This document shows positions 2,540 to 50,667 of a stretch of 54,068 bases of DNA, piece by piece (positions within the stretch are counted from its first letter, which is position 1; each line of letters opens with the position of its first letter). The DNA lies in contig JAODNN010000068.1 in the NCBI GenBank assembly GCA_025465355.1, forward strand, positions 1 to 54,068, written 5' to 3'. The notes beneath the pieces were generated by a model that worked only from the letters and a program-made list of their open reading frames with translations, ran no database searches and was not told the DNA's origin. The position numbers and the translations under genes are program-made. This DNA is from Blastococcus sp. (GTDB lineage Bacteria > Actinomycetota > Actinomycetes > Mycobacteriales > Geodermatophilaceae).

Positions 2540-2545
2540 TACGGT
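2540..2545 (+). promoter_or_regulatory. -10 element TACGGT of aidB (leaderless)
   Basis: TACGGT lies 6 nt before ATG 2552 with no ribosome-binding site between. It supports that ATG over the GTG 27 nt upstream. Confidence 0.6.
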
Positions 2546-2551
2546 GCCCGC

Positions 2552-4177
2552 ATGAGCGCGACGCACGAGGTGGCCAACCAGGTCCCGCCGCTGATCGGCT
2601 ACGACCCCATCGCCGGCGACGCGGCCCTGGCCGAGGCCTGCACGCGGCATGCGGACACCGCCACGCTCGACTCCCTGGCCGCCCTCGGCGCGCTGGCAGG
2701 GAGCGAGCAGGCGCAGGAATGGGGCCGGGTCGCCAATGAGAACCCGCCGAAGCTGCGCACGCACGACCGGTTCGGCCACCGGGTGGACGAGGTGGAGTTC
2801 CATCCGTACTGGCACGAGCTGATGCGGACGGCCGTGGAGAACGGCCTGGCCGGCGCACCGTGGGAGGCGTCGGCGTCGGGAGACCGGCACGCGCACGTGC
2901 GCCGCGCCGTCGGCTACATCGGCTGGACGCAGATCGAGATGGGCCATGCCTGTCCGACGACGATGACCTATGCCGCCGTTCCGGCGCTGCGCCGCAGCCG
3001 CGAGCTGGCGGCACGGTACGAGCCGGGGCTCACCAGCCGGGAGTACCAGTTCGGCCTGGCCGAGCCGACGGGCAAGCGCGGTCTGATCGCCGGCATGGGC
3101 ATGACGGAGAAGCAGGGTGGGTCGGACGTCCGGACCAACACCACCCGCGCCGTCGCCCAGCCCGACGGCTCCTACCGCCTCACCGGGCACAAGTGGTTCA
3201 CCTCTGCGCCGATGAGCGACCTGTTCCTCGTGCTCGCGCAGCTCGACGAGGGGGTCTCGTGCTTCCTGGTGCCGCGCGTGCTCCCCGACGGCAGCCGCAA
3301 CGTCTTCCGGCTGCAGCGGCTCAAGGACAAGCTGGGTGACCGGTCCAACGCCTCCAGCGAGGTGGAGTTCGAGGAGACGGCGGGCTGGCTGGTCGGCGAG
3401 CCGGGCCGGGGAGTCCCCGCGATCATCGAGATGGTCAACACCACCCGGCTGGACTGCGTCCTCGGCTCGGCCGCCACGATGCGGGCCGCGCTGACCCAGG
3501 CGGTGCACCACGCCCGGCACCGGCGTGCCTTCGGTGCGCTCCTGGCCGACCAGCCGCTGATGCAGAACGTGCTGGCCGACCTCGCCGTGGAGAGCGAGGC
3601 CGCCACGGCGCTGGGTATCCGGCTGGCCGCAGCGCTGGACGCGGGGGAATCTGCCTTCCTCCGGCTGGCGGGGGCCGCCGCGAAGTTCTGGGTGTGCAAG
3701 CGGACGCCGACCGTGGTGGCCGAGGCGATGGAGGTGCTGGGCGGCAACGGCTACGTCGAGGAGTCGGGGCTGCCGCGGCTCTACCGGCAGGCGCCGCTGA
3801 ACTCGATCTGGGAGGGCTCGGGCAATGTAATCGCGCTCGACGTCCTCCGGGCCATGGGCCGCTCCTCGGACACGCTGGCCGCGGTCAGTGCCGAGATCGA
3901 GCTCGCCCGCGGCGCCGACGGCCGGTTCGACGACGCCGTCAAGCGGCTGCACGCGGAGCTCGGCGACCCCGACCAGCTGCCCGTCCGGGCCCGTCGGGTC
4001 GCCGGACTTCTGGCGCTCTGCCTGCAGGGGTCGCTGTTGTTGCGGCACGCCCCGGGATCCGTCGCGGACGCGTTCTGCGCATCGCGCCTGGCCGGCGACT
4101 GGGGGGCGGTGCTGGGAACGTTGCCGGCCGGCGCGGCGGTCCGATCCATCGTCGAACGGGCTTCGATCGGCGGCTGA
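2552..4177 (+). CDS. aidB: AidB-type acyl-CoA dehydrogenase family protein (adaptive response)
   Basis: 541 residues, matching AidB length rather than the ~380 of ordinary acyl-CoA dehydrogenases. It shares long conserved stretches with E. coli AidB: ANENPPKLRTHDRFG, GLIAGMGMTEKQGGSDVRTN, GHKWFTSAPMSDLFLVLAQ, LKDKLGDRSNASSEVEF, AEAMEVLGGNGYVEES and NSIWEGSGN. AidB is a FAD-containing, DNA-binding flavoprotein of the alkylation (Ada) response in E. coli; it is thought to shield DNA from, or deactivate, alkylating agents. The acyl-CoA dehydrogenase fold and FAD-binding region are intact. No ada, alkA or alkB lies nearby, so regulation by alkylation is unproven here. A CTGACC-18-TAGTCT promoter for the next gene begins at its stop codon. 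Confidence 0.93.
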   Translation: MSATHEVANQVPPLIGYDPIAGDAALAEACTRHADTATLDSLAALGALAGSEQAQEWGRVANENPPKLRTHDRFGHRVDEVEFHPYWHELMRTAVENGLAGAPWEASASGDRHAHVRRAVGYIGWTQIEMGHACPTTMTYAAVPALRRSRELAARYEPGLTSREYQFGLAEPTGKRGLIAGMGMTEKQGGSDVRTNTTRAVAQPDGSYRLTGHKWFTSAPMSDLFLVLAQLDEGVSCFLVPRVLPDGSRNVFRLQRLKDKLGDRSNASSEVEFEETAGWLVGEPGRGVPAIIEMVNTTRLDCVLGSAATMRAALTQAVHHARHRRAFGALLADQPLMQNVLADLAVESEAATALGIRLAAALDAGESAFLRLAGAAAKFWVCKRTPTVVAEAMEVLGGNGYVEESGLPRLYRQAPLNSIWEGSGNVIALDVLRAMGRSSDTLAAVSAEIELARGADGRFDDAVKRLHAELGDPDQLPVRARRVAGLLALCLQGSLLLRHAPGSVADAFCASRLAGDWGAVLGTLPAGAAVRSIVERASIGG

Positions 4178-6490: not shown

Positions 6491-7228
6491 GTGCTCGACA
6501 GCCCTGACGCCGCTCCCGCGAACCTCACCGACACCGCACCGGTCGACGATGCCGAGCCCGGTACGGGACCGGGTGCCGCTGCGGTGGACGGTCGCCCGCG
6601 GCCGCCGCTGGACCTGCTCATCTGGGACGCCCCCAACATCGACATGACCCTGTCGACGGTCATCGGGGCCCGGCCGACGGCGGCATCGCGACCCCGGTTC
6701 GACGCGATCGCCGCCTGGTTCGTGGAGGCCGCGGGGGATCCATCCCTCCCCGACGCGCCCGACGTCGAGGCCTGCGTGTTCGCCAACATCCCGCCGGTGC
6801 CCGGCCCGCTCCAGCGCTGGGTCGAGGCTCTCCGCGGCTTCGGTTTCGCGGTCTTCGCCCGGCCCAAGTCGCAGCCTGACGACGACATCGACCAGGACAT
6901 GCTCGACCACATCGACGTCCGGGCGCACAGTCATCGCCTGCGGCGCCTGGTCGTGTTCTCCGGGGACGGCCGCAACTTCGCCGAACCGCTCGAGGAGCTC
7001 GTGCGGCAGGGCACAGAGGTCGTCGTCGTCGCGTTCAGCGAGGTCGCCGGGTACGCGATCAGCTCGGAGCTCCTGCAGTTCATCGACATCGAGGACGTCC
7101 CCGGGGCGTTCGTGGAGCCGTTGGACCGCGTCCGGCTGGACGCACTGCCGCCGGACGGCGCATGGCTGCGGCCCACGCGCAGCCTGCGGGACTTCGTCAG
7201 CTCCTTCACGGCCCGTCGGAACGGCTGA
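6491..7228 (+). CDS. NYN (LabA/PIN-like) domain protein, putative ribonuclease
   Basis: 245 residues. After an acidic, disordered ~35-residue leader, the protein carries the NYN layout of acidic clusters: WDAPNIDMT near residue 45, DDDIDQDMLDHI near 135, and FSGDGRNFAEPLEEL near 157. These Asp residues form the metal site of PIN-fold nucleases. The PLEELVRQGTEVVVVAF strand-helix is typical of the DUF88/LabA branch. NYN proteins are generally RNA-processing nucleases; the target here is unknown. It lies between two c-di-GMP enzymes on the same strand but with its own leaderless start, so any functional link rests only on position. The C-terminal ~45 residues have no recognised motif. Confidence 0.82.
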   Translation: MLDSPDAAPANLTDTAPVDDAEPGTGPGAAAVDGRPRPPLDLLIWDAPNIDMTLSTVIGARPTAASRPRFDAIAAWFVEAAGDPSLPDAPDVEACVFANIPPVPGPLQRWVEALRGFGFAVFARPKSQPDDDIDQDMLDHIDVRAHSHRLRRLVVFSGDGRNFAEPLEELVRQGTEVVVVAFSEVAGYAISSELLQFIDIEDVPGAFVEPLDRVRLDALPPDGAWLRPTRSLRDFVSSFTARRNG

Positions 7229-7381
7229 CCGGACCGCACAGGCACCCGGTCGGCCCCACCGCGCCGGCCGCTGACCTGCGGCGGAGTCCGTCGGCGGCCG
7301 CACGCAAGACCGGTGTCACCCACAAGGGTCAGGCGCACCGTGCTGCCTCATGGCGGCACCCGGCCGTGCCGATGGAATCCT

Positions 7382-8836
7382 GTGTCCATTGCCCTGTTCC
7401 GCCGCCTGAGCGTGCGGCGCCATCGAGGGGAGGTGCCGTCGGGGAACGAACCGGCGCCGCCCCGGGTGGGGCTGTCGGCGGGCCGTGCCCGGGCCGGGGA
7501 CACCGATCAGCTGACCGCCCGGTCGTCGCTGCGGGACATGACCGCGGCCATCCCGGGCCTGCGCGAGCGGCTGATCGAGCGCGCGCGAGGGGCCGGGCTC
7601 CTGGTGGGCTCGGCAGCCGTGGTCGTGGTCCCGCTGTGGACGGTCGTCGACAGCGTGCTCGCACCGAACCAGGTCGGGACGTTCCTCGTGGTCCGCCTGG
7701 CGTGCGACATCCCCATGCTGCTGGCGCTCTGGGCCCTGTGGCGGCTGCCCGTCGGGCGCCGCCAACCCGAACGGCTGACCTACCTGATCCTCTTCGTCAT
7801 CCAGGGGGAGGTGGCCTGGATGGCGCTCCGCGTGCAGGACGTGGGCTACTACCTCCTCGGCTTCACGGTCGCCATCTATCTCAGTGGCTGTGTCCTCGTG
7901 GCCCGCCCGCGGTGGACCGGCCGGCTGGTGGCGGTCTCCTGGGGCTCGCTGCTCGTGTCGGCGCTGACGACGCCCCAGCCGCTGCGGGTCAGTGAGCTCG
8001 TGGCGGTCGGGATCTACGTGGGCACCGCCTCGCTGGTCGCCGTGCTGGCCCACGTCCGCCGCTACGCGCTGAGCAACCAGGGGCTGCTCACCCGGGCCCG
8101 GCTGGAGCACGAACAGAAGCGGACCGCGGTGCTGCTCGCGCGGCTGGAGCGGCTCAGCCACGAGGACCCCCTGACCGGCCTGGCCAACCGCCGCCGTTGG
8201 GACGGCGAACTCGCCGAGGCCTGCGACGCCGCGCGCACGCACGGGGGATCCGTCGGCGTGGTCCTGCTCGACCTCGACCACTTCAAGATGATCAACGACA
8301 GGTATGGGCACGGCGGGGGCGACGCGGCGCTGCGGGACGTCGCCGCGCTGCTCGCCGACCGGGTCCGCGAGGGGGACCTGGTGGCCCGCCTGGGCGGCGA
8401 CGAGCTCGCCGTCCTGATGCCCGGAGCCGACCTGGACCGCGCCGAGCAGCTGGCCGAGCGGCTGCGGGAGGAGGCGACCCGGCTGCAGCCTCCGGGCTTC
8501 TCCACCGGTGAGCTGACCCTGTCCCTCGGCGTCGCGGCGGCGTCGGGAGCGACGGCGTTCCCCGTCGAGCTGATGTCCCGGGCGGACGGGCAGCTCTACC
8601 GCGCCAAGATCACCCGGAACGCGGTCGCGTCCCCCCGGGATCAGCTGCCCTGCCCGCGTCAGCCCGGCCTTCCCACCGCCGCCGAAGCGGTGCGGCCGGC
8701 CCCTGATCCGATGGACCACTGCCTGCCCGTCCGCACCGCCGATGACCGACCGCGCCCGGTGAGCCGGACCGCCCCTGCCGCCCCGTGCGGCGCGTCGAGG
8801 GCGGGCGGCGTCGTCGCACGCCGGCCCGGCAGCTAG
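7382..8836 (+). CDS. Membrane-bound GGDEF diguanylate cyclase
   Basis: About 484 residues from GTG 7382. About six hydrophobic segments (residues ~70-230) form a membrane sensor, followed by a short coiled linker (ARLEHEQKRTAVLLARLERL) and a GGDEF domain. The active-site loop reads GGDEL (about 338-342), a variant that is often active. DLDHFKMINDRYGH supplies metal- and GTP-binding residues. REGD, exactly five residues before GGDEL, is an intact inhibitory I-site. The expected reaction is 2 GTP to c-di-GMP with feedback inhibition. The ~55 residues after the domain are Pro/Arg-rich and may be untranslated or disordered. The start is uncertain: the frame is open back to 7313, and GTG 7412 or 7433 are alternatives. 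The first membrane helix begins well after all of them. Confidence 0.85.
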   Translation: MSIALFRRLSVRRHRGEVPSGNEPAPPRVGLSAGRARAGDTDQLTARSSLRDMTAAIPGLRERLIERARGAGLLVGSAAVVVVPLWTVVDSVLAPNQVGTFLVVRLACDIPMLLALWALWRLPVGRRQPERLTYLILFVIQGEVAWMALRVQDVGYYLLGFTVAIYLSGCVLVARPRWTGRLVAVSWGSLLVSALTTPQPLRVSELVAVGIYVGTASLVAVLAHVRRYALSNQGLLTRARLEHEQKRTAVLLARLERLSHEDPLTGLANRRRWDGELAEACDAARTHGGSVGVVLLDLDHFKMINDRYGHGGGDAALRDVAALLADRVREGDLVARLGGDELAVLMPGADLDRAEQLAERLREEATRLQPPGFSTGELTLSLGVAAASGATAFPVELMSRADGQLYRAKITRNAVASPRDQLPCPRQPGLPTAAEAVRPAPDPMDHCLPVRTADDRPRPVSRTAPAAPCGASRAGGVVARRPGS

Positions 8837-11332: not shown

Positions 11333-12927
11333 GCCGACGGGGGAACCGCGGCGAACGGCCCCTGGCCGAGCGGCTCGCCGCCCTGCGCGAAGCGGTCGAG
11401 GTGGCCGAGGGCCGCCTCGAGGTCCCCGAGGTGGGGCGGGCCCGCGCACTGCTGGCCAAGGCCGGGGCGCGCGCCGCCCTCGGCGACGCCACGGTCGTCG
11501 CGCTCGCCGGGGCGACCGGCAGCGGGAAGTCGACGCTGTTCAACGCGCTGTCCGGCAGCGAGGTCAGCTCTCCGGGCGTGCGGCGGCCGACGACGGGCGT
11601 CGCCCACGCGACCGTCTGGGGAGAGGCCGGGGACGACGGCGCCGACCGGCTGCTCGACTGGCTGGAGGTGCCGCGGCGGCACCGGCACGCACCCGAACCC
11701 GCCCTGGACGGACTGGTCCTCCTCGACCTGCCCGACCACGACAGCGTCCGGCTGGAGCACCGGCTGGAGGTCGACCGGCTGGTGGGGCTCGTCGACGTCC
11801 TGGTGTGGGTGCTCGACCCGGAGAAGTATGCCGACGCCGCCGTCCACGACCGTTATCTCCGCCCGCTGGCCTCGCATACCGGTGTCCTGCTCGTCGTCCT
11901 CAACCAGGTCGACCGTCTCGAGGACACCGCGGCGCGGGCGTGCCGGGCCGACCTGCGTGCGCTGCTCGACGGTGAAGGCCTGGCCGGGGTGCCGGTGCTG
12001 GCGATGTCGGCACGTACCGGCGCGGGCGTCGCGGAGCTGCGTGGGGAACTCGCCCGGCGGGTCGCCGCGCGCCGGGCCGCCACCGACCGGCTCACCGCCG
12101 ACGTGCGAGCGGCTGCCGGGTCACTCCAGGCGTACTGCCCGCGGGACGACGTCCGCGCCGGGCTGGGCACGGACGAGCGGGACGAGCTCGTCGAGGCGCT
12201 CGCCGCCGCCGCGGGGGTCGGCACGGTCCGCGCCGCCGTGGAACGGTCGACGGTCCGCGTGGGCTGGGCGCTGACCGGGTGGCCACTCGTGCGCTGGACG
12301 CGGAAACTGCGGCCCGACCCGCTCGAACGACTGCACCTCGGGAACGTGGGGGCCCGGACCTCCCTGCCCGCGGCCGGCCCCGGGGAACGCGCCGCGGTGA
12401 CGACGGCCCTCCGCCGGGCCCGCGACGTGGAAGGGGAAGGGCTGCCGCAGGTGTGGCGCGAGGATCTGCGCCGGACGGTCGCGGGATCGGAGGAGGAGCT
12501 GGCCGACCGGCTCGACCGTGCGGTGGCCGCGACCGACCTGGGCCCCGACCGCACCCCGGTGTGGCAGCGGGCGGTCGGTGGGCTGCAGTGGCTGCTGGCG
12601 CTGGTGGCGCTCGCCGGGGCGCTGTGGTTGCTCGCCCTGGTCGTGCTCGGCTTCTTCCGGCTGGACGGCGTCCTTCCGCTGCCGCACGTCCAGCGGGTGC
12701 CATTGCCGACGCTTCTGGTCGCGGGCGGTCTGCTGGCCGGCCTGCTGCTGGCGCTGGTGGCCCGGCCGCTGGTCCGGCTGCGGGCGCGCCGACGGGGGCG
12801 GGCCGCGGAACGACGGCTGTGGGCCGCGGTCGAAGAGGTGGCCGACGAGGACGTGCTGGCGCTGATGGCCGCCGTCCGCCATGACGCCGACCGCTTCCGG
12901 GCGGCGGTCGACGCCGCGCTCCGGTGA
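11329..12927 (+). CDS. Membrane-anchored GTPase, second of a pair
   Basis: 532 residues. It has a complete G-domain: P-loop GATGSGKST (61-69), G2 RRPTTG, G3 DLPDHDS, G4 NQVD and a G5-like MSARTG. Two strong membrane helices lie near residues 415-440 and 460-485, followed by a basic, helical tail. Unlike its partner, the G4 motif is canonical, so this subunit may be the active GTPase and the upstream one a regulatory partner. Start GTG 11329 overlaps the upstream stop by four bases. Family members are annotated as 50S-binding or HSR1-type GTPases, but the two helices and tandem arrangement fit a dynamin-like membrane-remodelling pair better. The substrate and cellular site are unknown. Confidence 0.85.
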   Translation: MSRRGNRGERPLAERLAALREAVEVAEGRLEVPEVGRARALLAKAGARAALGDATVVALAGATGSGKSTLFNALSGSEVSSPGVRRPTTGVAHATVWGEAGDDGADRLLDWLEVPRRHRHAPEPALDGLVLLDLPDHDSVRLEHRLEVDRLVGLVDVLVWVLDPEKYADAAVHDRYLRPLASHTGVLLVVLNQVDRLEDTAARACRADLRALLDGEGLAGVPVLAMSARTGAGVAELRGELARRVAARRAATDRLTADVRAAAGSLQAYCPRDDVRAGLGTDERDELVEALAAAAGVGTVRAAVERSTVRVGWALTGWPLVRWTRKLRPDPLERLHLGNVGARTSLPAAGPGERAAVTTALRRARDVEGEGLPQVWREDLRRTVAGSEEELADRLDRAVAATDLGPDRTPVWQRAVGGLQWLLALVALAGALWLLALVVLGFFRLDGVLPLPHVQRVPLPTLLVAGGLLAGLLLALVARPLVRLRARRRGRAAERRLWAAVEEVADEDVLALMAAVRHDADRFRAAVDAALR

Positions 12928-12934
12928 GCGGCGG

Positions 12935-13447
12935 TCAGTCGCGGTAGATCTCGGGGGAGCGCGGCTCGGGGAGCCGGTTCTGCCGCTGCCTGGGAGGCTC
13001 GGTCCGCCCCGAGGGCAGCCGAGCCCAGACATGCTTGCGCCCGGGACGCGACTCCCAGCCGTACTCGAGCGACAGCTGCGCGACCAGGTGCAGGCCCATG
13101 CCTCCGAGGGCCGGATCGCGGTCGACGGCGGGAATGGGCGGCCGCTCGGGGGCCTCGTCGCTGAGATCGAGCAGCCAGCCGCCCGGCCCGGCGACGACCA
13201 GTGCCCGGACATCTCCCCCGCCGTGGCGCAGCGCGTTGGAGGCCAGTTCCTCGAACACCAGCAGCAGCCCGTCGCGGGCGTCCTCCGTGGACCCCGTGGA
13301 GACCGACGGGTGCGCGATCCGCGCGCGCAGGTCCGACCGCACGCGGGAGACGACGTGCATGGCTGCCAGTTGCCAGTGCCAGACGTCGCCGGGCACGGAT
13401 GGAACCGGAGCGCACGGCCACGCGTGCTGGGCCGGTTCCTCGGCCAT
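12935..13447 (-). CDS. RsbW-like anti-sigma/serine kinase (HATPase_c_2)
   Basis: 170 residues. The GHKL ATPase core is visible: N-box EELASNALRHGGG, G1-like DLSDEAPERP, and the G2 region DPALGGMGLHL. Such small kinases bind a sigma factor and phosphorylate a STAS anti-anti-sigma partner on serine. No sigma or STAS gene is adjacent. The start ATG 13447 is preceded by GAGGGGGAGGCG, a good ribosome-binding site; the frame is open further upstream but lacks homology there. It converges on the GTPase pair (7-bp gap) and diverges from the GAF-ANTAR gene. It is a paralogue of the protein at 18.0-18.5 kb, sharing ASNALRHGGG, PAVDRDP and a KHVWA-x-LP ending. Confidence 0.88.
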   Translation of the reverse strand: MAEEPAQHAWPCAPVPSVPGDVWHWQLAAMHVVSRVRSDLRARIAHPSVSTGSTEDARDGLLLVFEELASNALRHGGGDVRALVVAGPGGWLLDLSDEAPERPPIPAVDRDPALGGMGLHLVAQLSLEYGWESRPGRKHVWARLPSGRTEPPRQRQNRLPEPRSPEIYRD

Positions 13448-13563
13448 CGCCTCCCCCTCGCGTCTGCTTCGCAGGCGGACCGGAGTCGGGCCCGGCCGCC
13501 TCCATCCTGACCGATGGTGTTCCGGCGCGCAGAGGGGGGCCGCGGACCGTGGTCCCTTCACGG

Positions 13564-18041: not shown

Positions 18042-18518
18042 TCAGGCGCGGGGCAGCAGCGCCCAGACGTGCTTGTGGCCCGCGCGCACGTACCACCCGT
18101 GCATGCTCGCCAGCTCCGCGATCAGGTACAGCCCGAGGCCTCCCTCGCTGGGGTCCCGGTCGACGGCGGGGGCGGGCGGTGCGGTGGCAGCCTGGTCGGA
18201 GACCTCGATGAGGTAGGAGTCCTCGGTCAGCCGCAGGACCGCCCGCACCTCCCCGCCGCCATGGCGCAGCGCGTTGGAGGCCATCTCGTCGAACGCCAGG
18301 ACGAGCTGATCGCGGAGGTCGGCACTCTCCTGGTCGTTCCCGCGGGCGGTGGCGCTGGTGTGCCGTCGCAGCTCGTCGCGGAGGCGGGGCAGCTCGGCGA
18401 TGTCCCGGAGCTGCCAGGTGAGAATGGGGCTGGCCGGGGGCGGCCACGCGGTCGGCCACGCCGGTCCAGCCCCCTGCCCTGTCACGCCGTTCCCCTTGCC
18501 CGTGGGCCGCCGTCGCAT
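18042..18518 (-). CDS. RsbW-like anti-sigma/serine kinase (HATPase_c_2), second paralogue
   Basis: 158 residues from ATG 18518. The N-box is DEMASNALRHGGG, the G1-like motif is EVSDQAATAP, and the G2 region is DPSEGGLGLYL, followed by the HKHVWALLP ending it shares with the 12.9-kb paralogue. It presumably sequesters a sigma factor or phosphorylates a STAS partner, but neither is encoded nearby. Two starts are possible: ATG 18518 with GGAGGTG 11 nt upstream, or GTG 18485 with AAGGGG at better spacing; the extra 11 residues are basic and low-complexity. A cluster of three palindromes lies 48-86 nt upstream. It converges on the broken ggt gene. Confidence 0.87.
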   Translation of the reverse strand: MRRRPTGKGNGVTGQGAGPAWPTAWPPPASPILTWQLRDIAELPRLRDELRRHTSATARGNDQESADLRDQLVLAFDEMASNALRHGGGEVRAVLRLTEDSYLIEVSDQAATAPPAPAVDRDPSEGGLGLYLIAELASMHGWYVRAGHKHVWALLPRA

Positions 18519-37146: not shown

Positions 37147-37161
37147 GTGATGAGTGGGTGA
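37147..37161 (+). other. Possible leaderless micro-ORF (MMSG) coupled to the sensor gene
   Basis: GTG ATG AGT GGG TGA reads as a four-codon ORF placed exactly where leaderless translation would start. Its TGA overlaps the GTG of the sensor gene (GTGA at 37158-37161). Termination-reinitiation could therefore set sensor translation. Chance is possible with so short an ORF. Confidence 0.3.
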
Positions 37162-40100
37162 TCGAGGGCCCGCTGGAGCGCTCCCTCTTCGCCCACGGTG
37201 GTGAGCTCGGGCGCGAGATGAGCGCCCGTCAGTGGGCCGAGACCCCGGTCGGACCGCCGTCGGGGTGGCCGTCGGGGCTGCGCAACGCCGTCCGGATCGT
37301 GCTGACCTCGCGTTTCTCCATGTGGGCGGCGTGGGGCCCGGAGCTGACCACCTTCTACAACGACGCCTACCGCGAGAACACTCTGCAGGCCAAGCATCCC
37401 CGGGCGCTGGGCCGCCCGGCCCGCGAGGTGTGGGCCGAGATCTGGCACGACATCGGCCCGCGCATCCAGTCGGTGCTCGACACCGGCGTCGCGACGTGGG
37501 ACGAGGACCTGCTGCTCTTCCTGGAGCGCAGTGGCTATCCGGAGGAGACCTACCACACCTTCTCCTACAGCCCGCTCGACGGCGACGACGGCCGTATCGA
37601 GGGCATGCTCTGCGTGGTCACGGAGACCACCGAGCGGGTCGTCGGCGAGCGGCGCATGGCGCACCTGCGCGACCTGGCGGCGGCGGTGGCCACCACCCGG
37701 GTCGAGGCCGACGTGCTGGCCGCGGTCGCCGACCAGCTGGGCCGCAACCCCGCCGACCTGCTGTTCGCGGCCGTCTACCTCTTCGACGAGTCCGGGATCG
37801 CGCGGCTGGGCTGCGCCGCCGGCATCGAGCCCGGTGCGGTCGCGGCGCCGGCCGTGCTCCGGCCCGACGACGCCGCGCCGGTCTGGCCCCTGGCCCGCAT
37901 CCTGGCCGGCGAGCAGGTGCTGGTCGACGACCTCCGGGAGCGCTTCGCGGAGCTGCCCACGGGGGCATGGGCCCAGCCGCCGTCGCACGCCGTCGCCGTT
38001 CCGATCGCCTCCTCGACGCAGGGCCGGGCGCCGGTCACCGGGTTCCTCGTCGTGGGGCTGAACCCGCACCGGCGCTACGACGACGCCTACCGCGGCTTCG
38101 TCGAGCTGGTGGCCAACCAGATCGGGTCGGGGCTGCTCAACGCGGGCAGCTACGAGGCCGAGCGGCTCCGGGCGGAGGCGCTGGCCGAGCTGGACCGCGC
38201 CAAGACCGACTTCTTCAGCAACGTCAGCCACGAGTTCCGGACGCCGCTGACCCTCATCATGGGTCCGGTCGCCGAGCTGCGGGCCTCGCCCGCCGTGGAC
38301 GGCGATCCGCGGCTGCGCGAAGAACTCGAGGTCATCGAGCGCAACGCCCTGCGCCTCGGCAAGCTGGTCAACACGCTGCTCGACTTCTCCCGCATCCAGG
38401 CGGGGCGGATCGACGCCCGGTTCGAGCCGGTCGACCTCGCCGAGGTCACCACGGAACTCGCCAGCGTGTTCCGCTCGGCGGTCGAGCGCGCCGGCCTGTC
38501 GTTCGTCGTCGACTGCGCCCCGGTGACCGAGCCGGTGCACGTCGACCTCGACATGTGGGAGAAGGTCGTCCTCAACCTGCTCTCCAACGCGCTGAAGTTC
38601 ACCTTCGACGGTGAGATCGCGGTCCGGGTGCGCCAGGTGGACGGCGCGGCTCAGCTCACCGTCCACGACACCGGTACGGGCATCCCCGCCGACGAGCTCC
38701 CCAGGCTCTTCGAGCGGTTCCACCGGGTCGCCGACGGCAGGGGCCGGTCGGGTGAGGGCAGCGGCATCGGGCTGGCCATGGTGCGCGAGCTGGTCAGCCT
38801 GCACGGCGGGACGATCGCCGTGGCCAGCACCCCGGACGTCGGGACGACGTTCACCGTCACGCTCCCGCTGGGCACCGCGCATCTGCCGACCGACCGGATC
38901 GCGCCCGCGCCCGCCTCATCCGCGCCCGCGGTCTCGGCGGCGGCGGCGCCGTTCGTCGCGGAGGCGCTCCGCTGGGTGCCGTCGGTCGGGGACGCAGGGG
39001 AGCCCGACCTCGCCACCGTCACGGCGCAGCCGGCCGGCACGGGCGGACGCGTCCTGATCGCGGATGACAACGCCGACATGCGGGAGTACCTGCTCCGTCT
39101 CCTCGAGCCTCATTACGTCGTGGCTGCTGTGGGCGACGGTCGTGCCGCGCTGGAGGCCGCGCGGAGCGACCCGCCGGACCTCCTCCTCAGCGACGTGATG
39201 ATGCCCGGCATGGACGGCATGGAGCTGCTCGCCGCCTTCCGCGCCGACGGCCGGACCTCACGGATCCCGGTCGTCCTGCTGTCGGCCCGGGCCGGTCAGC
39301 AGGCCGCGGTCGAGGGGCTGGCGGCCGGCGCCGATGACTACCTCGTCAAGCCGTTCTCGGCGCAGGAGCTGCTCGCCCGCGTCGGCGCGCACCTGCACCT
39401 GGGCCGGGCCAGGCGGGCGGCCGAGGAGCGGTTCACCGCCATGGCCGACCTCGCCCCGGCGCTGATCTGGGTCGCCGACTCCGTGGGCCGGCGGGTCTTC
39501 GTCAATCGCGGCTGGACCCAGTTCACCGGGCGATCGACGAACGACGAGCTCGGCGTCGGCTGGACCGACCGGGTGCACCCGGAGGACCGCGACCGCTACG
39601 CGGAAACGGTGAACGCCGCGACAGCCGAGCGGCGGGGCTGGGAGGTCGAGTTCCGGCTCCGCAGGACCGACGGCGCCTACCACTGGCTGCTCGAGCGGGC
39701 CGTGCCGATCGGTGCCGGCGAGGCGTTCGCCGGCTATGTCGGCAGCTGCACCGACATCAACGCGCGGTTCCGGGAGACCGAGCGCCAGACGCTGCTTGCC
39801 GCCGTGGGCGCTGCGCTCGACCGCGAGACGGCGGTCGACGAACAGCTGAGCCGGCTGGCACGGCTGACCGTCGACAGCCGGCTGGCCGACCTTTGCACCG
39901 TGCGGGTCGTCGGGGAGGACGGGCACATGCGGCTCGCGGGGGTCGCCGCGCTCGACCGCGAGAGCGAATCCCTCGTGGCCGGGATGGACCCCGACACCGG
40001 GCTCGGCCTGGAGGCGGTGGCACGCGGGCGTTCGATGCTGCAGCCGTACCTGCCCGCCCCCCACGTCGTCAACGGAACGGACATGGCGTCGGTCATGGCG

Positions 40101-42287
40101 CTGCCGCTGACCGTCCGCGGGCGGGTCCTGGCCGTGCTGGCGCTGGGCCGCCGGTCGGACGCGCCCGCGTTCAACGAGGACGACCGTGCGCTCGTGGAGG
40201 AGATCGCCGCCCGCGCCGCCCTCGCGCTGGACAACACGGCGCTCCTCGCCGAGGAGCGAGCCGCGGCCCGCCGGCTCGCGCTGCTGCAGGGGGCCACGGC
40301 GGAGCTGTCGGCCGCGACCACCCCCGTCGACGTGGGCGTCGCCGCCGCCGAGCACATCCGGCAGCTGACCGGCCCGGGCAGCCGGGTCGCCGTCTACGAG
40401 ATCGACCCCTCGCACCGCGCGCTCGCGGTGCTCACGATCAGCGGCGGCAGCGAGGAGGCCCACCGCGTCTGGTCCAGCGTTCCGCTGTCCGCTCCGCTGG
40501 CCGCGCCGGCGGCGGTCCGGGAGCGGCACCCGATCTGGATCGAGGACATCAGCCTGCAGCCGCCCCGGCCCCAGGAGCTGCCGCCGGAGCTCGCCGAGGC
40601 GTCGCAAGCATTCGGGCTGGCGGCCACCGTCGCCCTCCCGCTGATGGTGGCCGGGCGCGTGGTGGGGGTCATCGGGATCGGGTTCCCCACGGTGCAGGAG
40701 TTCTCGCCCACGGAGCGGGCGATGCTGCTCGCCGTCGCCGAGCAGTGCGCCCAGGCCCTGGACCGCGCCCGCCTCTACCGGGCGGAGCAGGGCATCGCCG
40801 AGACGCTGCAGCGGAGCCTGCTGCCGGCCGAGCTGCCCCGCCTGGAACGGCTGGCACTGGCGGCGCGCTACCTGCCGGGCGCCGAGGGCACCCGGGCCGG
40901 TGGTGACTGGTACGACGTCGTCGATCTCGGGGACGACCGCATCGCCATCGCCGTCGGCGACGTGGTCGGCCAGGGGCCCGCGGCCGCCGCCGTCATGGGA
41001 CAGCTGCGCAGCGCGCTGTCGGCCGCCCTGCTGCAGGGCTGTCGGCCGGCGGAGGCGCTGGAGCTGCTGGACCGCTTCGCCGCCCGGCTGCCCGGCGCCC
41101 TGGCCTCCACGGCGGCGTGCCTGGTGATCGAGGCGTCGAGCGGCACCGTGTCGTGGTCCCGCGCCGGGCATCCGCCGCCGCTGCTCATCACCCCGGACGG
41201 CGACACCCGGCTGCTCGACCAGGCCGGCTCCGGCCCGGTCCTCGGTGCCCCGCGTCGCCGCCCGTACGCCGAGGGCACCGTGACCATTCCGCCGGGCGCC
41301 ACGCTGCTGCTGTACACCGACGGCCTGGTGGAACGTCGCGGTGAACTGCTCGACGACGGGCTGAGCCGCATCCGCGCCGTCGCGGCCCGGCACGCCGCCG
41401 CCGCGCCCGAGCTGCTCACCGGCCGGCTGCTGGCGGAGGTACTGGCCGACACCGACCAGCCCGACGACGTCGCGGTCATCGCCGCCCGGCTCCTGCCGGC
41501 ACCCCTGCACGAGCGTCTTCCGGCCGATCCCGCGCGGCTCGCCGGCGTCCGCCGCGCGGTGCGGGCCTGGGCGGTGCAGGCGGCGCTGCCCGAGGACACC
41601 GCCGACGACCTCCAGCTGGCGCTCGGGGAGGCGCTCGCCAACGCGGTCGAGCACGCCTACGCCGCGAACGGTCCCGGGGAGTGCGAGTACAGCGCGACCC
41701 GCGAGGCGGACGGCAGCGTGCGCGTGCGCGTCCAGGACGCCGGCGCGTGGCGGCCGCCGCCGTCGGACAAGGGGCACCGCGGCCGCGGGCTGGAGCTCAT
41801 CCACGCGCTGGCCCTCGACGTCCAGGTCACCTCCGCACCCGCAATCGGCTTCGGCACGACGGTCGCCTTCCGGCTGGCGCCCGGCGACGCGGGACCGGTC
41901 CGCGGCCTCCGCTTGCGGGGAGCGCCACCGGACGCCTCGGTCGAGGGCGCTGCCGTGTGGGCTGAGGGCACCGCCGCCCGGGTCGTCGCGCACGAGGAGG
42001 CCTCGGGCGTGCGGTGGGAGGTGACCGGCGAGCTGGACCTCGCGACGGCGGGGTCCATTCATGCGGCGCTGCTCGCCGAGCTGGACACCCTTCCGGCGGG
42101 TGCCGCCGCCGATCTCGATCTCGGATCGACGGCTTACCTGGCCAGCGCCGGGGTCGGGATGGTCCTGCAGGTCCTGGCGCTGGCCGCTGACCGGGGCGTC
42201 CGCCTCCGGCTGCGCGCGGCGCCGGGGACGCCGTCCGCGCGCGTTCTCGCTCTGGCCGGGCTGGGGGACGCGGTCGCGGCCCGCTGA
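37158..42287 (+). CDS. Giant hybrid: PAS-GAF-histidine kinase-receiver-PAS-GAF-GAF-PP2C-RsbW-STAS
   Basis: 1709 residues, no membrane segment. By order: PAS-like (1-160), GAF (165-330), HisKA with H358 in SNVSHEFRTP, HATPase (460-570; N-box NLLSNALKF, GEGSGIGLAM), receiver (630-745; D679 in LLSDVMMPG, K731), PAS (755-870), GAF (880-1030), GAF (1035-1205), SpoIIE-type PP2C (1225-1445; D1250 and D1253 in GGDWYD, D1268, D1388 in YTDG, D1437), RsbW-type ATPase (1455-1575; GEALANAVEHAY, RGRGLEL) and STAS (1605-1709; S1663 in LASAG). S1663 aligns with the phosphorylated Ser of SpoIIAA and RsbV, but the preceding Asp is Ala. All catalytic residues checked are present. The protein thus carries kinase, substrate and phosphatase of partner switching behind a two-component module. 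It is followed by another RsbW-type protein. Confidence 0.9.
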   Translation: MIEGPLERSLFAHGGELGREMSARQWAETPVGPPSGWPSGLRNAVRIVLTSRFSMWAAWGPELTTFYNDAYRENTLQAKHPRALGRPAREVWAEIWHDIGPRIQSVLDTGVATWDEDLLLFLERSGYPEETYHTFSYSPLDGDDGRIEGMLCVVTETTERVVGERRMAHLRDLAAAVATTRVEADVLAAVADQLGRNPADLLFAAVYLFDESGIARLGCAAGIEPGAVAAPAVLRPDDAAPVWPLARILAGEQVLVDDLRERFAELPTGAWAQPPSHAVAVPIASSTQGRAPVTGFLVVGLNPHRRYDDAYRGFVELVANQIGSGLLNAGSYEAERLRAEALAELDRAKTDFFSNVSHEFRTPLTLIMGPVAELRASPAVDGDPRLREELEVIERNALRLGKLVNTLLDFSRIQAGRIDARFEPVDLAEVTTELASVFRSAVERAGLSFVVDCAPVTEPVHVDLDMWEKVVLNLLSNALKFTFDGEIAVRVRQVDGAAQLTVHDTGTGIPADELPRLFERFHRVADGRGRSGEGSGIGLAMVRELVSLHGGTIAVASTPDVGTTFTVTLPLGTAHLPTDRIAPAPASSAPAVSAAAAPFVAEALRWVPSVGDAGEPDLATVTAQPAGTGGRVLIADDNADMREYLLRLLEPHYVVAAVGDGRAALEAARSDPPDLLLSDVMMPGMDGMELLAAFRADGRTSRIPVVLLSARAGQQAAVEGLAAGADDYLVKPFSAQELLARVGAHLHLGRARRAAEERFTAMADLAPALIWVADSVGRRVFVNRGWTQFTGRSTNDELGVGWTDRVHPEDRDRYAETVNAATAERRGWEVEFRLRRTDGAYHWLLERAVPIGAGEAFAGYVGSCTDINARFRETERQTLLAAVGAALDRETAVDEQLSRLARLTVDSRLADLCTVRVVGEDGHMRLAGVAALDRESESLVAGMDPDTGLGLEAVARGRSMLQPYLPAPHVVNGTDMASVMALPLTVRGRVLAVLALGRRSDAPAFNEDDRALVEEIAARAALALDNTALLAEERAAARRLALLQGATAELSAATTPVDVGVAAAEHIRQLTGPGSRVAVYEIDPSHRALAVLTISGGSEEAHRVWSSVPLSAPLAAPAAVRERHPIWIEDISLQPPRPQELPPELAEASQAFGLAATVALPLMVAGRVVGVIGIGFPTVQEFSPTERAMLLAVAEQCAQALDRARLYRAEQGIAETLQRSLLPAELPRLERLALAARYLPGAEGTRAGGDWYDVVDLGDDRIAIAVGDVVGQGPAAAAVMGQLRSALSAALLQGCRPAEALELLDRFAARLPGALASTAACLVIEASSGTVSWSRAGHPPPLLITPDGDTRLLDQAGSGPVLGAPRRRPYAEGTVTIPPGATLLLYTDGLVERRGELLDDGLSRIRAVAARHAAAAPELLTGRLLAEVLADTDQPDDVAVIAARLLPAPLHERLPADPARLAGVRRAVRAWAVQAALPEDTADDLQLALGEALANAVEHAYAANGPGECEYSATREADGSVRVRVQDAGAWRPPPSDKGHRGRGLELIHALALDVQVTSAPAIGFGTTVAFRLAPGDAGPVRGLRLRGAPPDASVEGAAVWAEGTAARVVAHEEASGVRWEVTGELDLATAGSIHAALLAELDTLPAGAAADLDLGSTAYLASAGVGMVLQVLALAADRGVRLRLRAAPGTPSARVLALAGLGDAVAAR

Positions 42288-42390: not shown

Positions 42391-43401
42391 GTGGACGCAC
42401 AGGCTTCGGACCGGTCGTTCCCGGCGACCCGGTCGCGTCCCCGACCGGCCCGATCCCCGGGTTCCGCCGGGCCCGGGCACGCGGCCGCGATCGTCGGCTC
42501 GGAGGCCGAGCTGCTCGCCGTCGCGCTGCCGTTCCTCGACGCCGGCCTCCGAGCCGGCGACCTCGTGGCGCTCGCCTGCTCGACGGAGACGGTGGAACTG
42601 CTCAGCCGCGAGCTGGGGGAGCGGGCCACATCCCTGGTGTCGGATCCGGGCATCAGCCTGCTCGGCTCCCGCGCGCCGGACGCGTTGATCCTCAGTCGCC
42701 GGTACCTGGAACGGGCCATGGGAACCGGTTCCGGACAGCTGTGCACCCTGTCGGAGATCGACTTCGGGCCGTCCCCGGCCGGCTGGCGCGAGGGACAGCG
42801 CTTCGAGTCGGTCTACAACCGGCTGATGGGGCAGTCCCCCGTGTCGGCGGTCTGCCTCTACGACCGCCGGCGGTTGCCGGAATCGGTCATCGACAGCGCC
42901 GCGCCCACCCATCCGCAGCTGATCCGGGGGACGGTCCGGTCGGCGAGCCCGCGCTTCCAGGATCCGGGTACCTACGTCCCGTCCCTTCCGCTCCCACGCG
43001 AACCGGTCGAGGACGGGGAGCCGGTCTTCTCCGTCGCCGACGCGCCCACCCTGGTGGGTCTCCGGCACCAGCTCGGAGCGGTGCTGACTGCCCGGGTACG
43101 GGACCGCGACCAGCGAGAGGACCTCCACCTCGGGGCCAGCGAGATCGCCGCCAACGCCTTCCGTCATGGCGTCCGCCCCGTCTCCGCCCGGGTGTGGGCC
43201 GACGGCGACCGCCTCATCTGCGTCATCACCGACCGCGGCACGGCGTACGACGACCCGTTGTCCGGGTTCGCCCCCGCCCACGGCTCGGACCTCTCCCACG
43301 GTGGCATGGGGCTGTGGCTGGCCCGCAAGCTCTGGGACCACGTCGATCTGCTGCCCGGCCCCGACGGCCTCACCGTCCGCCTGAGCAGCCGGCTGCGCTG
43401 A
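42391..43401 (+). CDS. MEDS sensor domain fused to RsbW-like ATPase
   Basis: 336 residues. An N-terminal MEDS/DcmR-type sensor domain (about 25-195; HAAAIVGSEAELLAVALPFLDAGL, and later CLYDRRRLPESVID) is fused to a C-terminal GHKL anti-sigma ATPase (about 215-335) with N-box SEIAANAFRHG, ITDRGTAYDDP and GGMGLWLARKL. MEDS domains are thought to bind small hydrocarbon-derived ligands; the ATPase would phosphorylate a STAS protein or hold a sigma factor. The STAS domain at the end of the preceding giant sensor, 104 bp upstream, is an obvious candidate partner. Start GTG 42391 follows GGGAGG at slightly long spacing. Confidence 0.87.
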   Translation: MDAQASDRSFPATRSRPRPARSPGSAGPGHAAAIVGSEAELLAVALPFLDAGLRAGDLVALACSTETVELLSRELGERATSLVSDPGISLLGSRAPDALILSRRYLERAMGTGSGQLCTLSEIDFGPSPAGWREGQRFESVYNRLMGQSPVSAVCLYDRRRLPESVIDSAAPTHPQLIRGTVRSASPRFQDPGTYVPSLPLPREPVEDGEPVFSVADAPTLVGLRHQLGAVLTARVRDRDQREDLHLGASEIAANAFRHGVRPVSARVWADGDRLICVITDRGTAYDDPLSGFAPAHGSDLSHGGMGLWLARKLWDHVDLLPGPDGLTVRLSSRLR

Positions 43402-49519: not shown

Positions 49520-50038
49520 ATGACCGAGCGCAAGCGCGCCGGGATGTCCTTCGAGACCTGGGTGGACAGCCAGATCTCCCGCGCCCAGGCCCGCGGTGAC
49601 TTCGACGACCTGGCCGGGGCCGGGAAGCCGCTCCCACGGCGCACCAGCGACGAGTCCACGTACCAGTGGGTGATCGACAAGGCGCGGCAGGAGAACATCG
49701 ACGTCCTGGGAATGCTGCCGCCCGCGCTGGCCCTGCGGAAGGAACGCGAGGATCTGCCCCGTCGCGCGGCGGCACTGCCGTCGGAGACGGCGGTCCGCAC
49801 GCTCGTGGAGGACTTCAACGAGCGGGTCCGGCTGTTCTGGCGGCGTCCGCAGGAGGGGCCCGCCGTGCCGGTCGGGCTGGCCGACGTCGAAGCGCTCGTG
49901 AAGGGGTGGACGGCGCAGCGCCCACCACCCGCGCCGGCACCCGCCGCGATCCCCGCGCCGATACGCCCCCGGCGCCGGCTGTTCTGGTTCTTCCGCCGCG
50001 GCGCTCAGCCGCCCGGCCGCACCAGCCCGCACTCGTAG
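49520..50038 (+). CDS. DUF1992 (DnaJ-homologue C28-like) protein
   Basis: 172 residues. The DUF1992 core spans about 8-75: FETWVDSQISRAQARGDFDDLAGAGKPLP with the invariant GDFDDL-x-GxGKPL, then LPPALALRKERE. A Pro-rich linker and a basic/aromatic end (RPRRRLFWFFRRG) follow. The function is unknown; in eukaryotes the domain is fused near a J domain. ATG 49520 follows GGGAGGAGGGGCGGTGCG, a strong ribosome site. Its last 34 bp overlap the 3' end of the convergent response-regulator gene, so the two mRNAs are antisense at their ends. Confidence 0.88.
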   Translation: MTERKRAGMSFETWVDSQISRAQARGDFDDLAGAGKPLPRRTSDESTYQWVIDKARQENIDVLGMLPPALALRKEREDLPRRAAALPSETAVRTLVEDFNERVRLFWRRPQEGPAVPVGLADVEALVKGWTAQRPPPAPAPAAIPAPIRPRRRLFWFFRRGAQPPGRTSPHS

Positions 50039-50667
50039 CCGAGGACGACGGCCTGGATCCGGTCCCGCAGGTCGAGCTTGGCCAGGACGTGCGCGACGTG
50101 GCTCTTCACCGTCGTCTCGGACAGCACCAGGTCGGCGGCGATCTCCGCGTTGGACCGGCCGCGGGCCAGTCCGGTGAACACCTCGAGCTCGCGCGGGGTG
50201 AGCTTCCGCAGCCGGTCGGGCACGCCGGCGCCCGGTGGCGGGCGCTTGACCCACTCCTCCAGCAGCCGGCGGGTCAGCGCGGGGTCGAGCAGGGCGGAGC
50301 CGTCGGCGACGGTCCGGACGGCGTGCAGCAGCGCCGCGCGCGGGGAGTCCTTCAGCAGGAACCCGCTCGCGCCGGCCCGCATCGCGGCATACAGGTACTC
50401 GTCCTCGCCGAACGTCGTCAGCACCAGCACGCGGAGGCCCGGCCGGCCACCGCGCAGCAGCCGCTCGGTGGCCTCGAGGCCGTCCATTCCCGGCATCCGG
50501 ATGTCCATCAGGACGACGTCCGGCCGGTGCTCGGCCACCGCCCGCACAGCCGCCTGACCGTCGGCGGCCTCCGCGACCACCTCGATGTCATCCTGCAGGT
50601 CGAGGATCATCCGCAGCCCGTCGCGGACCATCGCCTGGTCGTCGGCGATGACCACCCGGACCGTCAC
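50005..50667 (-). CDS. NarL/LuxR-type response regulator
   Basis: 220 residues. The receiver domain (1-120) has the acidic pair in IADDQ, phospho-acceptor D55 in VLMDIRMPG and Lys in LLKDSP. The LuxR-type HTH (about 150-215) carries LTPRELEVFTGLARGRSNAEIAADLVLSETTVKSHVAHVLAKL (given in parts by homology). It dimerises on phosphorylation and binds DNA. The start overlaps the stop of the kinase gene (ATGA, 50664-50667), so this is a cognate pair. The regulon is unknown. Confidence 0.94.
   Translation of the reverse strand: MTVRVVIADDQAMVRDGLRMILDLQDDIEVVAEAADGQAAVRAVAEHRPDVVLMDIRMPGMDGLEATERLLRGGRPGLRVLVLTTFGEDEYLYAAMRAGASGFLLKDSPRAALLHAVRTVADGSALLDPALTRRLLEEWVKRPPPGAGVPDRLRKLTPRELEVFTGLARGRSNAEIAADLVLSETTVKSHVAHVLAKLDLRDRIQAVVLGYECGLVRPGG

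What the first reader, a model, noticed from the sequence alone, without database searches (positions are those of the whole stretch)
37158..42287. One polypeptide combining a two-component phosphorelay with a complete partner-switching cassette
Seen: HisKA (H358) with HATPase and a receiver (D679, K731) are followed, after PAS and two GAF domains, by an SpoIIE-like PP2C (D1250, D1253, D1268, D1388, D1437), an RsbW-type kinase (GEALANAVEHAY) and a C-terminal STAS domain with S1663. Known: in Bacillus-type partner switching the phosphatase, kinase and STAS antagonist are separate proteins, and PAS/GAF-PP2C-HATPase fusions occur in actinobacteria. Inference: having the kinase and its own STAS substrate on the same chain, after a His-Asp module, suggests an intramolecular phospho-switch whose output would be capture or release of a sigma factor or another kinase. 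The MEDS-RsbW protein just downstream is the most obvious partner. The Asp before the phospho-Ser is Ala, so the switch may be tuned differently.
Basis: partly seen in the sequence, partly recalled or inferred. Interest (0 to 1): 0.72.

Follow-up and report, generated by a model that had tools for sequence, protein, structure and literature searches.

The report
Histidine kinase fused to partner-switching cassette
An actinobacterium carries one giant protein that joins a sensor histidine kinase to the phosphatase, kinase and switch domain that many bacteria make as separate proteins to control stress genes; each half is of a known kind, while the joined form, found next to the same partner gene in its closest relatives, appears little described.

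Summary
It is no one-off: 36 relatives share the HK-REC...PP2C-RsbW-STAS order. In a 34-row alignment S1663, the five PP2C aspartates and the RsbW box residues checked are invariant, although STAS is the most variable of eight domains compared. Modelled alone, STAS folds like RsbV/SpoIIAA, with S1663 opening a helix.

Gene order is the best functional clue. Of 45 relatives that lack the STAS domain, 44 have a stand-alone STAS gene beside them. A MEDS-HATPase (RsbA-family) gene follows the fusion in the window and in 27 of 27 complete loci of the two nearest genera, but not in eight more distant fused relatives.

One-chain PP2C-kinase-STAS proteins (Rv1364c) and histidine-kinase control of PP2Cs (RsbK/RsbY, RsfS/RsfR) are published. 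The combination is a new variant; my library searches showed no description, but the most relevant paper (de Been 2011) was not held. No SigB/F/G-type sigma match lies on the window's contig. All phosphotransfer steps are inferred.

The parts
37158..42287 (+). Whole gene, 1709 aa hybrid histidine kinase / partner-switching fusion
   Evidence: 36 relatives with the HK-REC...PP2C-RsbW-STAS order
37350..37640 (+). N-terminal PAS_4 (residues 65-161)
   Evidence: Pfam
38199..38405 (+). HisKA with H358 (38229-38231)
   Evidence: Pfam; H358 in 32 of 34 rows, the other two being L153 (cut at its contig end) and L141 (no HK by Pfam)
38556..38873 (+). HATPase_c of the histidine kinase (467-572)
   Evidence: Pfam
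39051..39383 (+). Receiver domain (632-742), D679 at 39192-39194, K731 at 39348-39350
   Evidence: Pfam; D636, D637, D679 and K731 in 33 of 33 rows once L141 (no REC by Pfam) is set aside
39495..39710 (+). PAS_3 (780-851)
   Evidence: Pfam
39885..40235 (+). GAF (910-1026)
   Evidence: Pfam
40320..40763 (+). GAF (1055-1202)
   Evidence: Pfam
40830..41498 (+). SpoIIE-type PP2C phosphatase (about 1225-1447, my boundaries; Pfam stretch 1259-1445)
   Evidence: Pfam; D1250, D1253, D1268, D1388, D1437 in 34 of 34 rows; model matches 3ke6 (Rv1364c) and SpoIIE
41517..41870 (+). RsbW-type HATPase_c_2 kinase domain (1454-1571)
   Evidence: Pfam; N-box E1491, N1495, H1499, G1 D1527/G1529 and G2 G1542/G1544 in 34 of 34 rows (box names recalled)
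41889..41963 (+). Predicted disordered tether 1578-1602 between kinase and STAS
   Evidence: pLDDT under 50 at model residues 364-388; no invariant column among 29 scored linker columns
42021..42263 (+). STAS domain (Pfam 1622-1702), candidate phospho-acceptor S1663 at 42144-42146
   Evidence: Pfam; AF2 pLDDT 92.7, S1663 first residue of helix 59-74; best PDB fold match RsbV of the RsbV/RsbW complex; S1663 in 34 of 34 rows
42478..42915 (+). MEDS domain of the downstream gene (frame ends at 43401; start codon not determined)
43042..43386 (+). HATPase_c_2 (RsbW-type) domain of the downstream MEDS gene, NCBIfam RsbA_anti_sig
   Evidence: the gene follows the fusion in 29 fetched relatives, two of them contig-edge pieces

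Best explanation
A one-polypeptide sensor that feeds a partner switch. Sensor domains and the His-Asp module (H358 to D679) set the activity of the PP2C domain through the PAS-GAF-GAF stretch. The PP2C domain removes, and the RsbW-type domain adds, phosphate on S1663 of the STAS domain, which hangs on a flexible tether of about 25 residues. Unphosphorylated STAS then binds an RsbW-type ATPase in trans, most likely the MEDS-HATPase (RsbA) protein encoded next door, and through it frees a SigF-type sigma factor encoded elsewhere. Shown here: domain order, intact catalytic residues, RsbV-like predicted STAS fold, conservation, gene linkage. Inferred: every phosphotransfer, its direction, the identity of the partner and the sigma output.
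For: Catalytic residues of the three cassette domains are invariant in 34 of 34 rows, while STAS is the most variable of eight domains compared (mean entropy 1.46; seven invariant columns, S1663 among them). Predicted RsbV-like STAS fold, top PDB match from the RsbV/RsbW complex. Split counterpart: of 45 HK-REC-PP2C-RsbW proteins without STAS, 41 have a STAS gene just downstream, 25 one just upstream, 44 at least one (exception L046); 17 of 17 HK-less PP2C-RsbW proteins also have one downstream. Control: 84 STAS hits in 88,811 bp within 700 nt of such genes, 2 in the other 845,884 bp of the same loci. MEDS-HATPase gene downstream in 27 of 27 complete loci of genera g3 and g11, and in two contig-edge pieces of g3. 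The same genome has an adjacent MEDS-STAS / MEDS-HATPase pair and a SigF cluster with a PP2C-RsbW-STAS protein. Published precedents: phosphorylation of RsfR by RsfS lowers its PP2C activity on RsfB (PMC10950880 abstract and passages); RsbK/RsbY (PMC4574943 passages).
Against: No biochemistry. No SigB/F/G-type match on the window's contig. The MEDS gene is not found beside eight fused relatives with an HK head (L005, L006, L007, L140, L155-L158) nor beside HK-less L141, so it is not essential to the fused design. Kinase activity of Rv1364c is disputed in print (Sachdeva 2008, title 'Loss of kinase activity...', seen only in reference lists). In SipA of Actinoplanes the STAS and RsbW-like domains of one chain are described as constitutively interacting, not as a phospho-switch (PMC10733313 passages). 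The REC of RsbK inhibits its kinase rather than relaying (PMC4574943 passages), so H358-D679 may not drive the phosphatase. 17 related PP2C-RsbW proteins, five STAS-fused ones and the C38 protein L142 do without the HK head. The cassette model matches 3ke6 with low TM-scores (0.42 by query length, rmsd 8.1), so the domain arrangement differs or is not captured.
Confidence: 0.48

Rival explanations
1. Two independent modules on one chain: the hybrid kinase signals through REC or another response regulator, and the cassette is run by its own PAS-GAF-GAF sensors. The REC only restrains the histidine kinase, as in RsbK. No phosphate signal passes from the His-Asp half to the Ser half.
For: Head and cassette occur apart: HK-less PP2C-RsbW(-STAS) proteins in both clans and the same head in the non-PP2C proteins L040, L041, L044. 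REC truncation of RsbK gave constitutive sigma-B activity (PMC4574943 passages). PAS and two GAF domains lie between REC and PP2C.
Against: Head and cassette are linked in 36 fused relatives and 45 STAS-less ones; RsfR shows that a receiver can control a PP2C, there on the same protein (PMC10950880 passages).
Confidence: 0.25
2. The STAS domain acts on the MEDS-HATPase protein only, with no sigma factor: a private switch controlling another kinase or enzyme, as SiaABC controls a diguanylate cyclase.
For: No SigB/F/G match on the window's contig; conserved MEDS neighbour in the nearest genera; non-sigma outputs of partner switching are known (PMC9239204 passage on SiaABCD; PMC3999984 passage on SypE-SypA).
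Against: NCBIfam names the MEDS-HATPase family 'anti-sigma factor RsbA family' and the genome carries a SigF-type sigma. The wider neighbourhood of the relatives was not surveyed for an output enzyme.
Confidence: 0.15
3. The RsbW-type domain is not an active kinase for S1663. It docks STAS in cis, or senses ATP, and S1663 is phosphorylated in trans by another kinase (RsbA or a Hanks-type kinase) or not at all.
For: SipA precedent of a constitutive in-cis STAS/RsbW contact (PMC10733313 passages); kinase loss claimed for Rv1364c in one title (Sachdeva 2008, reference lists only); phosphorylation of Rv1364c by protein kinase D proposed (PMC9138534 passage). S1663 lacks the Asp found before Ser in 58 of 58 downstream stand-alone STAS genes.
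Against: The N-box, G1 and G2 residues checked are invariant in 34 of 34 rows and so is S1663.
Confidence: 0.12

Closest known systems
Rv1364c of Mycobacterium tuberculosis (PDB 3ke6 for its RsbU-RsbW part)
   Same: PP2C, RsbW-type kinase and STAS in the same order on one chain (PMC9138534, PMC10950880 passages); best PDB match by profile (E 7.1e-70) and by fold for the cassette model; phospho-Ser in STAS (Ser600).
   Different: 653 aa with a PAS sensor (PMC9138534 passage); no histidine kinase or receiver named there.
RsbK/RsbY (Bacillus cereus) and RsfS/RsfR (Mycobacterium smegmatis)
   Same: A histidine kinase (hybrid in RsbK) controls a PP2C phosphatase that acts on an RsbV-type STAS protein.
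   Different: Separate proteins; a receiver lies on the phosphatase protein itself; the RsbW kinase and STAS are separate proteins (PMC10950880, PMC4574943 passages).
SypE (Vibrio fischeri)
   Same: RsbW-like kinase and PP2C phosphatase on one chain controlling a STAS protein, SypA (PMC3999984 passage); a receiver in SypE is recalled.
   Different: No histidine kinase on the chain (recalled), STAS separate, output not a known sigma factor.
SipA / sigma-SsdA (Actinoplanes missouriensis)
   Same: STAS and RsbW-like domains on one actinobacterial chain that touch each other (PMC10733313 passages).
   Different: 243 aa, STAS first, no phosphatase or histidine kinase domain named.
HK-REC-PP2C-RsbW proteins among L009-L080 (41 Mycobacteriaceae, 2 Nocardioides, 1 Actinoplanes, 1 Streptomyces)
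   Same: Same type of head, phosphatase and kinase; 45 found, 44 with an adjacent STAS gene.
   Different: STAS is a separate gene; the downstream one has Asp before Ser (58 of 58, the 17 beside HK-less proteins included).
RsbU/V/W and SpoIIE/SpoIIAB/SpoIIAA of Bacillus
   Same: Same three activities; STAS model closest to RsbV and SpoIIAA-type structures.
   Different: Separate proteins, sigma gene in the operon, no His-Asp module on the phosphatase (partly recalled).

Membership tests
Single-chain partner-switching regulators (Rv1364c type) | PP2C - RsbW kinase - STAS in this order on one chain | tested here: met
   Pfam; profile match to 3ke6 over 12-361 of 487 positions; STAS fold
Single-chain partner-switching regulators (Rv1364c type) | Conserved phospho-acceptor Ser in STAS | tested here: met
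   S1663 in 34 of 34 rows; aligned with the Ser of TM1442, SpoIIAA and RsfB chains
Single-chain partner-switching regulators (Rv1364c type) | Kinase and phosphatase act on that Ser in cis | not testable with these tools
   needs biochemistry
Single-chain partner-switching regulators (Rv1364c type) | PAS sensor head without histidine kinase | tested here: not met
   HisKA-HATPase-REC head present, so a variant, not a plain member
Hybrid histidine kinases | HisKA His, HATPase_c and receiver Asp/Lys on one chain | tested here: met
RsbK/RsbY- or RsfS/RsfR-type control of a PP2C | Receiver and PP2C on a response regulator separate from the kinase | tested here: not met
   receiver and PP2C are on the kinase chain with PAS-GAF-GAF between them
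RsbK/RsbY- or RsfS/RsfR-type control of a PP2C | Receiver phosphorylation changes PP2C activity | not testable with these tools
   needs biochemistry
Bacillus-type sigma-B/sigma-F operon partner switch | Cognate sigma gene in the cluster | tested here: not met
   no TIGR02980 match at E 0.001 on contig C75; the one over the cut-off is on C38
RsbA (MEDS-HATPase anti-sigma, NF041045) for the neighbour gene | Score over the curated cut-off | tested here: met
   215.5 bits against 210

The most novel reading that the evidence does not exclude
A self-contained His-Asp-to-Ser signal converter: the phosphorylation state of a receiver sets, within one polypeptide, the phosphorylation of a tethered STAS effector whose dedicated partner is the adjacent MEDS-type anti-sigma RsbA. 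The missing Asp before Ser is an adaptation to being phosphorylated in cis on a tether, which would explain why all fused rows lack it while all 58 downstream stand-alone STAS genes have it.
Probability: 0.28. Interest if true: 0.65.

Novelty: new variant of a known kind. Interest (0 to 1): 0.42.

Why it matters
If true, it is a natural single-molecule bridge between two main bacterial phospho-signalling chemistries (His-Asp and Ser), and the fused and split relatives give a ready comparison for how two-component input reaches a partner switch. It also touches an open question: PMC8115616 (passages) could not detect RsbRST or RsbK in M. vaccae, suggested a possible RsbPQX route and called for the pathway to be identified; M. 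vaccae (L013) carries an HK-REC-PP2C-RsbW protein with a STAS ORF on either side (the downstream one confirmed by Pfam), a further candidate.

Tried and rejected
Chance or frame artefact: rejected (GC3 0.94; relatives). STAS as a spurious weak Pfam hit: rejected by the AF2 model and Foldseek; a single-sequence phmmer of the domain against the PDB gave only chance-level hits (best E 0.021), the profile search gave E 1.6e-10. Plasmid-borne relatives of the STAS domain: no match in the plasmid collection. Origin in this genome: of 16 genomes of its genus (itself included) only this one has a close match; transfer or loss is undecided, since the full-length quick tree puts it beside 14 of the g3 rows (99) while the careful PP2C-RsbW tree puts it outside g3 plus g11 with weak support (85/38). 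Number of origins of the HK head from its own tree: undecided (7 of 50 inner branches starred). Sigma factor on the window's contig: not found.

Errors of my own: L141 (G065) entered the HK and REC profiles that I built from the 34-row alignment, so its HK/REC labels are wrong (Pfam finds no HK or REC; tblastn of the window protein matches only residues 1031-1707). L153 is labelled HK-less only because its contig starts inside the gene (HK and REC seen). Counts here use corrected labels. My first motif count for stand-alone STAS genes missed most sites and was replaced by the aligned count. Rows left out of the 45: L047 (no RsbW hit, at a contig end, no STAS gene found), L053 (gene in pieces over several frames) and ORFs with a PP2C score of 120 bits or less.
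Full report
1. Observation. The ORF at 37158-42287 is open for 1709 codons and has the codon-position GC of a real gene (0.79/0.53/0.94). Pfam gives PAS_4, HisKA, HATPase_c, Response_reg, PAS_3, two GAF stretches, SpoIIE, HATPase_c_2 and STAS_2 at the places listed under parts, and a third GAF stretch whose place was not printed. STAS_2 is the weakest call (32.9 bits, cut-off 29.2), so it was tested by fold: an AlphaFold2 model of residues 1605-1709 from 34 aligned rows has mean pLDDT 92.7 and places S1663 as the first residue of helix 59-74, just after a strand. Its best solved match is RsbV in the RsbV/RsbW complex; a Haliangium anti-sigma antagonist, RsfB with UsfX, and the SpoIIAA-type partner of SpoIIAB follow. 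A profile search aligns S1663 with the Ser of TM1442, of the SpoIIAA-type chain 1th8_B and of RsfB.

2. How widespread. A family-wide search (112 genomes) and fetched loci added L111-L130 (20), L137-L140 (4) and L153 (1, cut by its contig end). An order-wide search (298 genomes) gave many places, of which six were fetched; four of these (L155-L158, open frames of 1606-2521 aa) have the order by my profiles. Pfam confirms HisKA, REC, SpoIIE and HATPase_c_2 in L155 and L157 but scores their STAS_2 under the cut-off (20.2 and 21.8 bits); L156 and L158 were not scanned with Pfam. Together 36 relatives besides the window. In genus g3, which holds the Geodermatophilus records, 26 of 26 genomes have a strong match (E 3.5e-56 to 9.5e-78): 25 were seen with HK and REC in a fetched locus, one (G059) only as a C-terminal piece. 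In the window's own genus (16 genomes) the next best match is E 1.7e-31 (G028), a PP2C-RsbW-STAS protein with no HK hit.

3. Conservation. In the 34-row alignment (window plus 33, L141 included) the five PP2C aspartates, the RsbW residues checked and S1663 are invariant, 34 of 34. H358 is present in 32 rows; the other two are L153 (cut) and L141 (no HK). STAS is the most variable of the eight domains compared (mean entropy 1.46 against 0.56-1.34 for the others; the linker is 2.15; N-terminal PAS and GAF were not compared), yet S1663 is one of its seven invariant columns. The residue before S1663 is Ala in 31, Ser in 2 and Thr in 1 row. Nine further fused STAS domains (L142, L150, L151, L155-L160), read by eye, also keep Ser and lack Asp.

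4. Split counterparts. Among L009-L080, 45 relatives (41 Mycobacteriaceae, one Actinoplanes, two Nocardioides, one Streptomyces) have HK-REC-PP2C-RsbW but no STAS domain. 41 of the 45 have a STAS hit starting between 120 nt before and 480 nt after the end of the gene, 25 have one at its upstream side, 44 have at least one; the exception is L046. 17 of 17 HK-less PP2C-RsbW proteins have a downstream one. Control: 84 STAS hits fall in the 88,811 bp within 700 nt of PP2C ORFs of this kind and 2, both in L050, in the other 845,884 bp of the same loci. At the phospho-site the 58 downstream genes all read Asp-Ser; the 25 upstream ones read Gly-Ser (24) or Asp-Ser (1). The Gly two residues after Ser, usual in this family, is missing in 47 of the 58 downstream genes but present in all 25 upstream ones, so the downstream genes are odd in their own way. 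STAS thus looks like the natural partner of this phosphatase-kinase pair, and the fused form lacks the Asp. Since the fused forms make one clan, this is few evolutionary events and weak as statistics, and which state is older was not determined.

5. Tree. In a careful tree of 105 PP2C-RsbW segments the STAS-fused proteins form one group of 42 rows (100/99), except L142 (the C38 protein of the same genome, a long branch at the root), and the proteins without fused STAS another of 60 (98/99), except two long-branched Nocardioides rows. Both groups have members with and without the HK head. With labels corrected, the 42 hold 37 HK proteins (window included) and five HK-less ones (L141, L150, L151, L159, L160); the 60 hold 43 and 17. 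So the HK head was gained or lost more than once, while the STAS fusion may be a single old event, L142 aside. The root is the midpoint only.

6. Neighbours. The next gene downstream encodes MEDS plus an RsbW-type ATPase, NCBIfam 'anti-sigma factor RsbA family'. It follows the fusion in L001-L004, L111-L130 and L137-L139 (27 of 27 complete loci of genera g3 and g11, which hold the Geodermatophilus and Blastococcus records) and in the contig-edge pieces L153 and L154. It is not found beside L005, L006, L007, L140, L155-L158 (eight fused relatives) nor beside L141; the fetched stretches of L155-L158 hold only 1.3-2.3 kb downstream. In one search a tblastn of the MEDS protein against these and L009-L053 hit only L021, and there only with its ATPase half. 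The same genome also has an adjacent MEDS-STAS and MEDS-HATPase pair on contig C61, which supports STAS as the partner type of such ATPases. On contig C38 lie a STAS gene, a PP2C-RsbW-STAS protein (715 aa from the first start codon), an RsbW-type ATPase and the only sigma factor over the SigB/F/G cut-off. No SigB/F/G match at E 0.001 lies on the window's contig C75; the genome is in 195 contigs, so what lies beyond the contig ends is unknown.

7. Structure of the cassette. The AF2 model of residues 1215-1709 (25 rows) has mean pLDDT 85.1 and pTM 0.81, with residues 1578-1602 under 50, a likely flexible tether before STAS. Its best solved match is the RsbU-RsbW part of Rv1364c (3ke6_B, E 9.6e-29), but with TM-scores of only 0.42 and 0.59 and rmsd 8.1 over both domains; it is also the best by profile.

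8. Known background (what I saw). PMC10950880 (abstract and passages): Rv1364c has PAS, PP2C, kinase and STAS, with Ser600 phosphorylated and dephosphorylated by its own activities; RsfS phosphorylates the receiver of RsfR and lowers its PP2C activity on RsfB; RsbK is a hybrid kinase, and phosphorylation of RsbY by it raises RsbY activity. PMC9138534 (passages): Rv1364c as a single-chain version of the Bacillus system; its statement that Rv1364c is found only in pathogenic mycobacteria does not extend to the architecture, which Geodermatophilaceae share. PMC12143880 (passages): linker control of PP2C dimers by PAS, GAF and receiver heads, Rv1364c included. PMC4574943 (passages): inhibitory REC of RsbK. 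PMC9239204 (passages): a predicted REC-PP2C-kinase protein in Campylobacterota. PMC8115616 (passages): rsbK/rsbM in 17 of 244 mycobacteria, M. vaccae. PMC7693655 (passages): RsfB phosphosites, Rv1364c. PMC3231935 and PMC7522486 (passages). PMC10733313 (passages): SipA, STAS plus RsbW-like on one chain. PMC3999984 (passages): RbaY, and SypE with kinase and PP2C on one chain. de Been 2011 was seen only in reference lists (not held). Searches aimed at the fused architecture: searches listed nothing, two papers, five, three. In the passages read of PMC9239204, PMC10950880, PMC7522486, PMC9138534, PMC10733313 and PMC3999984 I saw no HK-REC-PP2C-RsbW-STAS protein; PMC8638967, PMC6180224 and PMC12329169 were seen in the listing only. 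Most subscription papers are not in that library.

9. Verdict. A real, conserved protein family of Geodermatophilaceae and relatives that joins a hybrid histidine kinase to an Rv1364c-type partner-switching cassette and in its main lineage sits beside an RsbA-family gene. Both halves are known kinds; the joined form is a new variant. The mechanism is inferred from anatomy, gene linkage and published relatives; every phosphotransfer step is untested.

Noticed in passing
L152 (G000:C61) 1892-2968 (-) and 2839-3696 (-): Adjacent MEDS-HATPase and MEDS-STAS genes in the same genome: a second RsbA-type pair, with a MEDS sensor on both partners.
   Followed up: partly
L013 7480-12054, with STAS ORFs 6896-7876 and 11964-12359 (Mycolicibacterium vaccae): HK-REC-PP2C-RsbW protein with a STAS ORF on either side, in a species in which PMC8115616 did not detect RsbRST or RsbK: a candidate SigF input route. 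The same species also has an HK-less PP2C-RsbW with a STAS gene (L067).
   Followed up: partly
L142 (G000:C38:37500-46500): SigF cluster with a stand-alone STAS gene, RsbW-type ATPase, sigma factor and, on the other strand, a PP2C-RsbW-STAS protein.
   Followed up: partly
window 18045-18518 (-) and 12938-13561 (-): Two further ORFs with an RsbW-type HATPase_c_2 domain in the window.
   Followed up: no
window 50008-50667 (-): REC-GerE (LuxR-type) response regulator.
   Followed up: no
L025, L028, L043 (PP2C ORFs about 1 kb upstream of the fusion) and L050: Extra PP2C phosphatase ORFs on the same strand upstream of the HK-REC-PP2C-RsbW gene; L050 (Streptomyces) has several PP2C and STAS ORFs around it.
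   Followed up: no
window 37158-42287 against genus g1 (G024-G038): Of 16 genomes of the genus only the window's own carries the close form; transfer or loss undecided.
   Followed up: partly
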